Assembly (NCBI RefSeq): GCF_023343835.1
Contig: NC_064472.1
Span: 47,527,652 to 47,591,651 of the forward strand
Length of the DNA stretch: 64,000 nt
Direction of reading: 5' to 3'
Source: Lagopus muta
Taxonomy: Eukaryota > Chordata > Aves > Galliformes > Phasianidae
Position numbers and translations under genes: made by a program. Below are positions 13,719 to 19,462 of the stretch, piece after piece; position 1 is the first letter of the stretch; every line of letters starts with the position of its first letter. The notes below the pieces were generated by a model that saw nothing but the letters and a program-made list of their open reading frames with translations, was not told the DNA's origin and made no database searches.

Positions 13719-13817
13719 TGTCTCGCTCCAATTTATAGGAGGGAGAGGAGGTTCTTTTATTATCTATATACCCGGCGTGAGATTAAGAAGCAACGGTTCA
13801 AATGTTGGTCCAACCAG

Positions 13818-13823
13818 TTTATT
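13818..13823 (-). terminator. Poly(A) signal AATAAA in the 3' LTR
   Basis: The AATAAA hexamer on the - strand lies in the R/U5 part of the 3' LTR. The same hexamer is at 18677-18682 in the 5' LTR. It would end the provirus transcript shortly downstream, around 13795-13805. Confidence 0.6.
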
Positions 13824-14092
13824 ACAAATCTTAATCAGGGGGAATGGGGAAGGGGAGAACGGACACTATTATGATTAGGGTAATGGGGGAAGGGAAGGAG
13901 GGCGATAGAAAAGATAGGAAAGAAGAGGCAAGGAATCTTTATAGGCAGCAAGAGGGACATAGTCACCACCATGGATCCAGCGAGGTTCGTAGTTCAGTCT
14001 TTGATCCTCAGTAGCGGTGGGTCGTCAGGCAGAGTTGTTCTGTTGCCAATGACGACGACGACCATGGTGATGATGGCCCTTTTTCAATGCTT

Positions 14093-14221
14093 CAAAGTGG
14101 TTGAGTCAGCTCTTTTTGGAGTGACAGCTCAAATCCAAAGTGGTCGAATCAGCTCTCCTTTGAGTGACAGCTCAAACCCAAGGTGGTTGAGTCAGTTCTC
14201 CTTGCGGTGGCAGCTTCTGGC
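14093..14221 (-). repeat. Three 43-bp tandem units in U3 (3' LTR)
   Basis: Units start at 14093, 14136 and 14179, each opening 'caa(a/g)gtggt'. Units 1 and 3 hold 'TGAGTCAG', an AP-1/Maf-type core; unit 2 has 'CGAATCAG'. Units 1 and 2 also contain 'GAGTGACAGCTC'. Position in U3 upstream of the TATA box suggests an enhancer array. The factor assignment is inference. Confidence 0.85.
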
Positions 14222-14602
14222 TCTGGGATCTCAGCAGGAACCTCCTTTGTTCTTATCTTTCTGGCCTTGCCAGCAGATAAGAGGAAGCAGGGAGGCACCA
14301 ACTTGCATCTTGCCTTCACAAGATACAATGGTATCATCCCCCAACCTTCCATACTTAGCTGGAGCGGTTTGGCCGCAAGCCAGATCTTCCGCCAGTGAAC
14401 ACTGTTGAGCACTCTCTTCCGCTCTTCTACAGAGCAAGCAGCTCTGGGGGAAGGGGCTTGCAAATGTTCCCAAAGAGATATCGATTGTCACACAGTTAGC
14501 ACCCATCAGTTGCCTCCCTGACAAGTCACTCAGAGTCTTATCACAAGAAAAACCTCAGGAAGCAAGCTTTGAGCCAAAAAAAAACTAAGAAGGATTCTCA
14601 CA

Positions 14603-14748
14603 CCACCCCGTGGCTCAAAGATTGCTTGAAATAAAGTATAAGTGACCCTCCACGGTGGTGAGGAAAAGAAAAGGGAGAAAACAAAAAGACAGCAAAGAAG
14701 CGGGGGGGGGGGGGAGGAAGGAGGAGGGGGAGAAGGGGAAGATAATCG
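14603..14748 (-). other. 3' non-coding end of provirus, C/T-rich on the RNA strand
   Basis: Between the env remnant and the 3' LTR the + strand is almost purely purine from about 14655 to 14742, including a run of fourteen G at 14702. The provirus RNA would therefore carry a C/T-rich tract here, not the expected purine tract. The bases next to the LTR read CGGGGTGG on the - strand and may serve as a minimal polypurine tract. Confidence 0.6.
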
Positions 14749-15201
14749 TTACACAATTACTACAAAAGATTTCTTGGGCTTGGTTACAAATGTTGCCCTG
14801 ATCTGTTGGACTTGTCCATCATCAGTTGAAGTGGTTACAAAATACATGGAAGATACAACACGTTGTATAAGTTGAATAAAACATGGAATCATACAGGGTA
14901 CAAACATAAGAGTTGCAACAACACACAGTAGATAAAACAGGATACGTTTGACCCATGGGCCACCTGGAAGCCAGGAAAAGAAATCAACGTCTAGGCCCTT
15001 CCAGGTTTGGACAGGAACATGGGCTATCTTCCGCATACCCTGGGCAATTTGTTTAACAACTTTACCATTATCATCAATCTTTAGACAACAATTAGAATCA
15101 TTCAATTTGCCACAGACACCACTCGGTGACACCTCAGGAGTGGTGGCACAAATGTTACATGTTGAATAAAATGTAGAAAGTGAAAAGAGACAACCATACA
15201 T
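14749..15201 (-). pseudogene. Env transmembrane (TM) subunit remnant
   Basis: A 150-codon open piece has the layout of a gammaretrovirus-like TM C-terminal half. A cysteine pattern (C-G-K-L-N-D-S-N-C-C) comes first, then a heptad-like helix. A 'WLPGGPWVKR' pre-membrane stretch, a hydrophobic anchor of about 20 residues and a short tail follow. The cysteine spacing is C-x7-C-C, one more than the usual x6. Env would mediate membrane fusion, but the upstream SU/TM part is interrupted by stops, so no full protein can be made from this copy. Confidence 0.72.
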
Positions 15202-15791
15202 TTAGCAATGACCACACATTTCACAATAACCAATAATAATAAATAAATAGGTAAAACAAACTTAGGTATTTGTGTCAGCTGCTTTCCCCACCCAGGAACT
15301 CCCAGTGTAAGCCAGGATCCAGATGGGAATTCTTCAGTAGAGGTTGTGGTGTTTATGAATAGCCATACAATGTTACACTTCAGTTAATTCACTAAAAGTG
15401 TATCTAGTCTAATTTGACAATATGTGGACTTGCCATGTAATGTTTTCTAAGATGATTTAGTGTCTCGAGAACTTTACACTTGAGCATTTCCAAAGCAATT
15501 CAAATGCTAAGAGATACAAATATTAGTTTGGCAAGTTCAAGTATTGTTACAGTCCACAGAACTTTTCACAGGACAGTGTGTGCAGGATACCCCACAGTAC
15601 AAACCATCACAGAGGGGTAATCCCAGAAACACATACATCTCTTTTTAAAACTTAGGCACTTTCCAACAACCATGTTGGAAACCATGTTCCAACAACATCC
15701 AACAATGTTTTGGATGGAACTCCTGGACTGGTGTGACACTGAAAAGCATCAGTGCAAAAGGCTTTCTGATAGATTTCTTTTGTGACCACAT
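15202..15791 (-). pseudogene. Degraded env middle region
   Basis: It lies between the env N-terminal piece and the TM piece. I find stops in all frames and no long open stretch. The total distance from the env start to the end of TM is about 1.36 kb, shorter than a typical env, so part of SU/TM seems deleted as well as mutated. Confidence 0.5.
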
Positions 15792-18134: not shown

Positions 18135-18550
18135 TTTTTTCAATACAATGAGAGACCTACACCAGGGGAGGTGCACGTATTCAAAAGCTCAAGTGACTCC
18201 TTATCTCCCCGGGGAAACAGACACTTTACAAATGCTAATGCTCAAAGCACTCTTCCCTTTCTCTGAGGGGAGCACACAAAAAGATGCAAATTTCACACTT
18301 AAGTTACAAGATACTTAAAATCGCAAAATTCAGAGAGGTCTTCTCGAGGAGGCACAACACTTAATCAAAATTAATTCATACGTCCCCGAGAGGTATACAC
18401 ATAAACTGTAAAGTTTCAGAATGTGGAGCGGTCTTCCTGGAGAAGGACTCACGTCTAAGTTTTCAAAACTATCGCTCCATGCAACTCCAGGAGGTGCACA
18501 CAAAGAAAGTTTCAGACTATATCTGGAAGGACAATACTCTCACGGCGGGT
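18135..18550 (-). other. 5' leader with seven reiterated short palindromes
   Basis: Between the primer site and gag, a short self-complementary motif recurs at 18484, 18433, 18383, 18340, 18261, 18204 and 18161. On the + strand most read roughly 'CTCC-GGAGG-GCACAC'; examples are CTCCAGGAGGTGCACAC, CTTCTCGAGGAGGCACAAC and TCTCCCCGGGGAAACAGACA. Spacings of about 43-57 bp, with one of 79, suggest degenerate tandem duplication. This is the region where retroviruses keep dimerisation and packaging signals, so stem-loops for RNA packaging are a reasonable inference. Confidence 0.65.
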
Positions 18551-18568
18551 ATCCTGCCGACTACGCCA
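18551..18568 (-). promoter_or_regulatory. Primer binding site, tRNA-Ser type
   Basis: The + strand ATCCTGCCGACTACGCCA equals the last 18 nt, CCA included, of vertebrate tRNA-Ser of the AGA type as I recall it. On the - strand it starts TGGCGTAGTCGG. It lies nine bases inside the 5' LTR edge (18569-18577), a wider gap than usual. It would prime minus-strand DNA synthesis. Confidence 0.8.
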
Positions 18569-18795
18569 TTAAATAAATGTCTCGCTCCAATTTATAGGAG
18601 GGAGAGGAGGTTCTTTTATTATCTATATACCCGGCGTGAGATTAAGAAGCAACGGTTCAAATGTTGGTCCAACCAGTTTATTACAAATCTTAATCAGGGG
18701 GAATGGGGAAGGGGAGAACGGACACTATTATGATTAGGGTAATGGGGGAAGGGAAGGAGGGCGATAGAAAAGATAGGAAAGAAGAGGCAAGGAAT

Positions 18796-18802
18796 CTTTA
18801 TA
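18796..18802 (-). promoter_or_regulatory. TATA box of the 5' LTR promoter
   Basis: TATAAAG on the - strand, preceded by 'gctgcc' and followed by 'attcc'. The same site, with the same context, occurs in the related solo LTR at 59175-59181. It lies about 114 bases upstream of AATAAA, a normal spacing for an LTR R region. Transcription should start about 25-30 bases downstream, near 18765-18772. Confidence 0.65.
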
Positions 18803-18951
18803 GGCAGCAAGAGGGACATAGTCACCACCATGGATCCAGCGAGGTTCGTAGTTCAGTCTTTGATCCTCAGTAGCGGTGGGTCGTCAGGCAGAGTTGTTCT
18901 GTTGCCAATGACGACGACGACCATGGTGATGATGGCCCTTTTTCAATGCTT

Positions 18952-19080
18952 CAAAGTGGTTGAGTCAGCTCTTTTTGGAGTGACAGCTCAAATCCAAAGT
19001 GGTCGAATCAGCTCTCCTTTGAGTGACAGCTCAAACCCAAGGTGGTTGAGTCAGTTCTCCTTGCGGTGGCAGCTTCTGGC
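18952..19080 (-). repeat. Three 43-bp tandem units in U3 (5' LTR)
   Basis: Same three units as in the 3' LTR, at 18952, 18995 and 19038, upstream of the TATA box at 18796. As the promoter-proximal copy in the 5' LTR, this is the functional candidate enhancer of the provirus. Confidence 0.85.
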
Positions 19081-19462
19081 TCTGGGATCTCAGCAGGAAC
19101 CTCCTTTGTTCTTATCTTTCTGGCCTTGCCAGCAGATAAGAGGAAGCAGGGAGGCACCAACTTGCATCTTGCCTTCACAAGATACAATGGTATCATCCCC
19201 CAACCTTCCATACTTAGCTGGAGCGGTTTGGCCGCAAGCCAGATCTTCCGCCAGTGAACACTGTTGAGCACTCTCTTCCGCTCTTCTACAGAGCAAGCAG
19301 CTCTGGGGGAAGGGGCTTGCAAATGTTCCCAAAGAGATATCGATTGTCACACAGTTAGCACCCATCAGTTGCCTCCCTGACAAGTCACTCAGAGTCTTAT
19401 CACAAGAAAAACCTCAGGAAGCAAGCTTTGAGCCAAAAAAAAAACTAAGAAGGATTCTCACA

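What the first reader, a model, noticed from the sequence alone, without database searches (positions are those of the whole stretch)
13719..19462. Recent, pol-less ENS-1/ERNI-type provirus with near-identical LTRs
The two LTRs look the same by eye except for one A. A perfect TCAGC duplication flanks the element and the gag-like ORF is intact, yet there is no protease, RT or integrase and env is in pieces. A young insertion without its own enzymes means it was mobilised in trans. It may be polymorphic among birds of the species.
Basis: partly seen in the sequence, partly recalled or inferred. Interest (0 to 1): 0.8.

Follow-up and report, generated by a model that had tools for sequence, protein, structure and literature searches.

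The report
Pol-less grouse retrovirus with helper relative
A young virus-derived insertion in a grouse-like genome has lost the enzymes for copying itself but keeps one intact gene, and sister copies and a fuller relative in the same genome indicate that it spreads by borrowing such a relative's enzymes.

Summary
The LTRs (13719-14602, 18578-19462) differ by no substitution and one A, TCAGC flanks both ends, and gag is open (515 codons, minus strand). The host is grouse-like, not chicken: gag is 94% identical to Lagopus muta, 83% to a chicken-ENS-1-like protein.

Pol is not wholly absent: its first codons and last ~80 remain; about 930 between are gone. All 5 other two-LTR copies fetched, and 16 of 20 sampled gag copies, share this junction; the other 4 carry a second pol deletion. 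So the deleted genome is what replicates. At least 74 gag copies are stop-free (84 of 812 candidates scored), against one open pol of this family (45 of 2618 scored). That pol-bearing relative has nearly the same leader, an 86% LTR, and one pol-less copy is a gag recombinant with its type. Trans-mobilisation is strongly supported; present activity and polymorphism were not tested.

The HP1-binding motif of ENS-1/ERNI is in 22 of 26 pol-less copies read and none of three readable pol-bearing ones. Chicken ENS-1 is already published as non-autonomous, so this is a new member.

The parts
13714..13718 (.). target-site duplication TCAGC, left copy
13719..14602 (-). 3' LTR of the element (884 bp)
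   Evidence: identical to the other LTR apart from one A
14603..14616 (-). G-rich stretch before the 3' LTR where the polypurine tract should be; short and impure
   Evidence: read; function inferred
14749..15201 (-). 150-codon open frame = C-terminal (transmembrane) part of Env
   Evidence: Syncytin-2 match E 0.0048; no stop in 6 of 6 copies, summed dN/dS 0.29; 93% identical over 127 aa to the env place of the pol-bearing relative
15202..16255 (-). degenerate remainder of env and its leader
   Evidence: pieces only; two pieces with a stop in one or two of six copies, dN/dS 0.63 and 1.73; no PDB match
16256..16500 (-). remnant of the C-terminal end of pol
   Evidence: 16462-16256 matches residues 957-1025 of the 1025-aa pol P0122, 54%, E 2.6e-19; similarity further upstream read by eye
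16507..16509 (-). pol deletion junction (about 930 codons missing)
   Evidence: shared by 5 of 5 other two-LTR copies and 16 of 20 sampled gag copies
16509..16560 (-). remnant of the first codons of pro-pol
   Evidence: resembles the gag-pro border of P0015 and P0091 and the start of P0122 (by eye)
16587..18134 (-). intact gag ORF, 515 codons, ENS-1/ERNI family
   Evidence: dN/dS 0.27 summed over 15 pairs of six copies
16704..16727 (-). HP1-box site in gag (GLPTVMLE, PxVxL kept)
   Evidence: motif from PMC3958431
18135..18577 (-). leader between 5' LTR and gag
   Evidence: 427 identical bases, 13 mismatches, 5 gap columns against the pol-bearing relative
18551..18568 (-). primer-binding site, complementary to the 3' end of tRNA-Ser (tRNA sequence recalled, from no call)
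   Evidence: begins 9 nt after the LTR; the pol-bearing relative has the same 9-nt spacer and a primer site that differs by a small insertion
18578..19462 (-). 5' LTR of the element (885 bp)
19463..19467 (.). target-site duplication TCAGC, right copy

Best explanation
The element is one young copy of a non-autonomous endogenous retrovirus lineage (the galliform ENS-1/Soprano type). It keeps LTRs, primer site, leader and an intact Gag but has an internal deletion of nearly all of pol. Its RNA is probably packaged together with RNA or enzymes of a pol-bearing relative, reverse transcribed and integrated in trans; the two kinds of RNA recombine. Shown: structure, shared deletion, independent insertions for six two-LTR copies, existence of the relative, recombinant gag, constraint on gag as a whole. 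Inferred: co-packaging, that this particular relative is or resembles the helper, that Gag assembles particles, and that the cycle still runs today.
For: LTR identity and TSD. Same pol-deletion junction in 5 of 5 other two-LTR copies, each with its own 5-bp TSD and 0, 0, 4, 2 and 1 LTR mismatches, and in 16 of 20 stop-free gag copies sampled from the 84 scored; the other 4 have a second deletion joining the same left point to pol residue ~975. 74 of 84 scored gag matches have no stop (812 candidates) against one stop-free pol locus and three degenerate ones of this family (45 of 2618 candidates scored). The pol-bearing relative has open gag (505 aa), pol (1025-aa match, no stop) and a 543-aa open frame in the env place, an LTR pair with 1 mismatch in 843, and a leader nearly identical to the window's. 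Copy L010 has gag of the relative's type in its first part and of the pol-less type after a switch at roughly nt 600-800: 90 R/7 W left and 4 R/139 W right of one point, 7 unclear, of 247 informative sites; fit 229 against at most 159 in 2000 shuffles. Gag dN/dS 0.15-0.31 in the five pairs tested, binomial p 1.1e-4 to 1.3e-14.
Against: No transposition was observed and no particle shown. The pol-bearing copy is one locus in one assembly; another helper could have existed or be missing from the assembly. Recombination shows that the two lineages met, not that this copy served this insertion. Constraint on the C-terminal part of gag (360-515) is weak (ratios 0.90, 0.52, 0.54, 0.63, 0.20; one of five significant). 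The six two-LTR elements come from the 40 best of 1654 LTR candidates, so they lean to copies like the window's. TSDs were not checked for the 20 sampled gag copies, and some gag matches sit in clusters (C8 29.6-30.9 Mb, C58 2.6-3.1 Mb) that may be duplications rather than insertions. LTR gene conversion could make a copy look younger than it is.
Confidence: 0.88

Rival explanations
1. Pol was lost after the insertion; the element inserted as a complete provirus and says nothing about trans-mobilisation.
For: A single locus cannot exclude it; pol ends remain, as expected of an internal deletion.
Against: The same junction in 5 of 5 other two-LTR insertions with different TSDs and in 16 of 20 sampled copies.
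Confidence: 0.02
2. The pol-less copies are moved by machinery of another ERV family in the genome, for example the abundant family at 37-38% pol identity with open 1140-aa frames (40 of the 49 rows), rather than by a close relative.
For: That family is abundant and open, while only one open pol locus of the element's own family was found.
Against: A near-identical leader and a gag recombinant tie the pol-less copies to the close relative's lineage.
Confidence: 0.1
3. Gag is kept because the host uses it (ERNI-like role at HP1 gamma), not because the element needs it to spread.
For: Published role of chicken ENS-1/ERNI (PMC3958431, passages); HP1 box in 22 of 26 pol-less copies read; whole gag constrained.
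Against: With at least 74 open copies, host selection on each copy is unlikely; constraint is weakest in the C-terminal part that holds the box; 4 of the 26 lack the box.
Confidence: 0.2

Closest known systems
Chicken ENS-1 (ERNI) and ENS-3/Soprano
   Same: Pol-less copies with an open gag beside a pol-bearing relative; PMC10996621 calls ENS-1 the non-autonomous variant of ENS-3, young, with 4 to 44 near-full-length copies across chicken assemblies (passages). Gag 83% identical to the chicken-ENS-1-like P0007; HP1 box and first SUMO motif kept.
   Different: Grouse-like host; about 24 more residues after the HP1 box than the 490-aa chicken protein; chicken p455 LTR oligos and TATA-like motif not found in this LTR; second SUMO motif lost its lysine in the window copy; pol deletion mapped here, and whether the chicken deletion is the same could not be tested.
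BHIKHARI-1 of zebrafish
   Same: Young ERV with intact gag and no pol in any reference copy, a partner element inferred (PMC10996621, passage).
   Different: Distantly related retrovirus by that paper; a pol-bearing partner is only inferred there, one is found here.
Bovine ERVK[2-1-LTR] C-type/D-type, mouse MusD/ETn, koala KoRV/recKoRV
   Same: Competent and defective elements in one genome, defective ones moved in trans; in cattle they outnumber the competent ones and one C-D recombinant is reported (PMC10924933, passages).
   Different: Defective bovine copies lack functional genes; here the pol-less copies keep gag open and constrained, and their gag differs from that of the pol-bearing relative.

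Membership tests
ENS/Soprano gag family (ENS-1/ERNI type) | homologous gag ORF over full length | tested here: met
   83% to P0007 over 95% of the query; P0007 (unnamed source) carries the chicken 3807 peptide 16 of 16, the window 14 of 16 (peptide from PMC3958431)
ENS/Soprano gag family (ENS-1/ERNI type) | HP1 box PxVxL | tested here: met
   PTVML in the window; chicken PTVRL
ENS/Soprano gag family (ENS-1/ERNI type) | SUMO motif 1 PLIKTEY | tested here: met
ENS/Soprano gag family (ENS-1/ERNI type) | N-terminal coiled coil and capsid-like domain | tested here: inconclusive
Chicken ENS-1 proper (gene with p455 promoter) | p455 LTR oligos, GATAAAA, CP2 site, sense TAATGG | tested here: not met
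   oligos at best 7 of 20 mismatches, the three motifs absent on the sense LTR; short GATA- and GGAA-type motifs are present but common; whole-LTR homology could not be tested; not filed as this
Chicken ENS-1 proper (gene with p455 promoter) | SUMO motif 2 ESVKVTQ | tested here: not met
   ESVRVTQ in window, L012 and L013; intact in L009 and L011; missing in L010
Non-autonomous, trans-mobilised ERV | no pol but independent insertions of the same deleted form | tested here: met
   six two-LTR copies with own TSDs; sampled copies
Non-autonomous, trans-mobilised ERV | pol-bearing relative with shared cis sequences in the genome | tested here: met
Non-autonomous, trans-mobilised ERV | mobilisation by the relative's enzymes observed | not testable with these tools
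   needs experiment or family data
Class III (ERV-L-related) retroviruses | RT groups with ERV-L or spumaviruses | tested here: inconclusive
   P0122 scores 184.9 bits with Pr125Pol 7o24 and 179.3 bits with 4mh8 (foamy and gamma labels recalled); no RT tree made; PMC10996621 says ENS-3 RT is sister to ERV-L (passage)

The most novel reading that the evidence does not exclude
The HP1-binding Gag studied in chick embryos as ENS-1/ERNI is an innovation of the pol-less lineage: the pol-bearing relatives read here lack the motif, and the main pol-less subfamily gained and spread it. Its first use would be the element's own, for instance holding HP1 off its own LTR chromatin in early-embryo and germ cells, and any developmental role would be a by-product.
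Probability: 0.15. Interest if true: 0.85.

Novelty: new member of a known kind. Interest (0 to 1): 0.6.

Why it matters
It turns an inference about chicken ENS-1 (a non-autonomous variant of a pol-bearing element) into a case with the pieces in one genome: many pol-less copies with one shared deletion, a second deletion type, one open pol-bearing relative, and a recombinant between the two kinds. It also shows that homologues of this Gag occur well beyond Galliformes (251 proteins at E<=0.001; among the 120 listed are eagles, owls, cranes, passerines, a tinamou and emu), against the statement that the ENS family is present only in Galliform species (PMC3362752, passage), while the HP1 motif itself was seen only in galliform or chicken-like rows (9 of the 103 listed database rows with the site covered). 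What Gag is kept for in a defective element becomes testable.

Tried and rejected
Rejected: pol loss after insertion. Rejected: HP1 box as a mark of all pol-less copies; 4 of 26 read have TTDRL. Rejected: the rows with the central valine of the box as one clade over the whole gag; AU p 2e-5 and 1.4e-4 for residues 1-200, but not rejected for 200-360 (p 0.35) or 360-500 (p 0.155). Gag is mosaic, as in Tympanuchus P0003 (99, 97 and 97% to P0016 over residues 1-360, then 53 and 70%; 89 and 95% to Lagopus P0001 over 360-500).

Led nowhere: relatives in viral contigs and genome contigs (no relative confirmed); Rfam (none); tail of P0015 as a query (itself only, 66 candidates); first structure job (pLDDT 57); fold searches (none at E<=0.001); PDB search with the gag profile (three rows, best E 0.0099, in the coiled-coil part). 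The gene model P0015 of Cyrtonyx runs from gag over the first pol codons into the same downstream region, but it may be spliced, so it is no proof of a genomic deletion there. The pol protein search listed 34 hits, none named as galliform; several are unnamed, and one of them, P0122, proved identical to this genome's own pol, so that absence meant little.

Against my reading: the non-coding leader gave a ratio of 0.42 and the LTR 1.34 in the same count, so 0.27 for gag is read together with the exact tests. Env TM pairs: p 8e-4, 0.01, 6e-5 and, for WIN-L011, 0.44; constraint there may come from exchange with the env-bearing relative rather than use in pol-less copies. WIN-L010 gag includes the recombinant part. 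Chicken ENS-3 is listed without HP1 box, but so are chicken copies with cut-short frames (Table 2 of PMC3958431). TSD and outer flanks of the pol-bearing relative were not checked.

Age bound: the rate 1.9e-9 is recalled; the other is from PMC2329609 (section 3, part 1 of 2).
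Full report
Observation. The two LTRs are 884 and 885 bp with no substitution and one A of difference in a poly-A run; the element is flanked by TCAGC on both sides, starts TG and ends CA. It is 5744 bp long and lies on the minus strand. The gag ORF has 515 codons and no stop.

Host. The best protein match of gag is Lagopus muta, 94% over the full length (22 member sequences in that cluster); Tympanuchus rows follow at 74-88%; P0007, from an unnamed source, carries the chicken ENS-1 peptide 16 of 16 and is 83% identical. In trees the window gag is the sister of the Lagopus row (98/90; 98/97). The genome behind the window has 1,026,658,476 bases in 165 contigs. I infer a grouse, perhaps a ptarmigan; the species is not proven.

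What is missing. P0122 is a 1025-residue pol with protease, RT, RNase H and integrase domains (precomputed Pfam). Window 16462-16256 matches its residues 957-1025 (54%, E 2.6e-19), and the sequence just after gag resembles its first residues and the gag-pro border of two other bird proteins. The rest, about 930 codons, is deleted. Pfam scans of the open pieces found no pol domain. The C-terminal env frame (14749-15201) resembles the transmembrane part of Syncytin-2 weakly (E 0.0048); two upstream env pieces have no PDB match.

Does the deletion predate insertion? Yes. A genome search with 601 bases of LTR scored 40 of 1654 candidates. These fall into 12 LTRs of six two-LTR elements including the window's, 6 further single LTRs, and 22 in one cluster on contig C3 (92.29-93.04 Mb). 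I fetched the five other two-LTR elements. All five cross the window's deletion junction with a 201-base probe (93.5-99.5% identity), have their own 5-bp duplications (TATGC, GATAC, AAAGG, GTGGG, TAGGC), LTR mismatches of 0, 0, 4, 2 and 1, and a gag frame without stop. The six single LTRs have 5-bp duplications in 6 of 6 and no internal element piece within about 9.3-9.9 kb on either side (one older LTR fragment lies near one of them), so they are solo LTRs. A search with the gag protein scored 84 of 812 candidates at 85-100% identity; 74 of the 84 have no stop. From these I took 20 stop-free ones, spaced down the list and not at random: 16 cross the window's junction and have the HP1 motif PTVRL or PTVML; the other 4, which have the lowest gag identity of the sample (86-90%), have TTDRL and a second deletion that joins the same left point to pol residue ~975. 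None of the 20 shows the start of the pol body (residues 19-130 of P0122) in the roughly 430 bases after gag. TSDs were not checked for these 20, and some gag matches lie in clusters that may be duplications.

The pol-bearing relative. A search with P0122 scored 45 of 2618 candidates and gave 49 rows: one locus at 100% with no stop, three loci on contig C57 at 78-88% with stops or in fragments, and 40 rows at 37-38% that belong to another family. The first locus has a gag of 505 residues (74% to the window gag, 97% to Tympanuchus P0016), a 543-residue open frame in the env place, and an LTR pair with 1 mismatch in 843. Its LTR is about 86% identical to the window's, but its leader agrees in 427 bases with 13 mismatches and 5 gap columns, and both have the same odd 9-base spacer between LTR and primer site. 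Different gag and LTR but nearly the same leader fit shared packaging and priming; that step is inferred.

Recombination. Along the element the five copies differ from the window by 0 to 31% per 200-base block, in different places. Copy L010 is the clearest: among 247 gag sites that separate the pol-bearing relative (R) from the pol-less type (W), 90 R and 7 W lie left of one point and 4 R and 139 W right of it, 7 being unclear; the fit (229) exceeds all of 2000 shuffles (at most 159). Its residues 75-180 are 94% identical to the relative, those of the other five pol-less copies 56-58%. Such a product is expected of template switching between two RNAs in one particle (established retroviral knowledge), which makes it the best sign that the two kinds were packaged together.

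Selection. Over 15 pairs of six pol-less copies, summed dN/dS is 0.27 for gag and 0.29 for the Env TM frame, against 0.56 for the pol remnant, 0.63 and 1.73 for two other env pieces, and 1.34 (LTR) and 0.42 (leader) for non-coding controls. The leader value shows that such ratios are noisy on short stretches. Exact tests on five pairs give p from 1.1e-4 to 1.3e-14 for whole gag; for residues 360-515, which hold the HP1 box, one of five pairs is significant. So gag is maintained as a whole, but selection on the HP1 box itself is not shown.

HP1 motif. The motif PxVxL is in 9 of the 103 listed database rows with the site covered, all galliform or chicken-like, and in the window. In this genome it is in 6 of 6 two-LTR copies and 16 of 20 sampled copies, and in none of three readable pol-bearing relatives (STDRL, TTDRL, CTDRL; the fourth gave no readable match). 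In chicken, ENS-3 is listed without the HP1 box, as are chicken copies with cut-short frames (Table 2 of PMC3958431, passage). These copies are related to each other, so this is an association, not a test of cause.

Known or new. Chicken ENS-1 is described as the non-autonomous variant of ENS-3/Soprano, young and variable in copy number (PMC10996621, passages). Defective elements moved in trans are known in cattle, mouse and koala (PMC10924933, passages). Eight searches of the paper library listed no paper that by its title is on ENS elements in grouse; beyond the listings I saw passages of PMC3362752, PMC3958431, PMC10996621, PMC5006616, PMC2717909, PMC4992247, PMC2329609 and PMC10924933, and sections 5, 7 and 16 of PMC3362752 and part of section 3 of PMC2329609. 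The case is a new member of a known kind, with a fuller set of parts than the ENS cases that I saw in print.

Noticed in passing
window 3345-9113: A second, older provirus on the minus strand: LTRs of about 320 bp at 89.6% identity and a long pol similarity at 6933-4606, 28-40% to P0122.
   Followed up: partly
window 58393-59398, 30418-30583, 39807-39928: Older LTR copies related to the element's LTR (81-86%, 87-95% and 74% in the matched pieces).
   Followed up: partly
G000 contig C3, 92.29-93.04 Mb: 22 LTR copies with one common score on both strands, partly alternating; the one unit looked at holds a split element (3' LTR, TM and part of env, then part of gag and leader). Looks like a large amplified array.
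   Followed up: partly
G000 contigs C29, C2 (two), C1, C7, C57: Six pairs of gag copies spaced 4.77-4.95 kb, as if tandem elements shared an LTR; and clusters of gag copies on C8 (29.6-30.9 Mb) and C58 (2.6-3.1 Mb).
   Followed up: no
window 18569-18577: Nine bases between LTR end and primer site, more than the usual 0-3 (recalled); shared by the pol-bearing relative. Unexplained.
   Followed up: partly
G000, 40 rows: Another ERV family with many near-equal scores and 1140-residue open frames, 37-38% to P0122.
   Followed up: no
window 33076-34683: 535-codon open frame that reads like a non-LTR (CR1-type) reverse transcriptase (label recalled, no search made).
   Followed up: no
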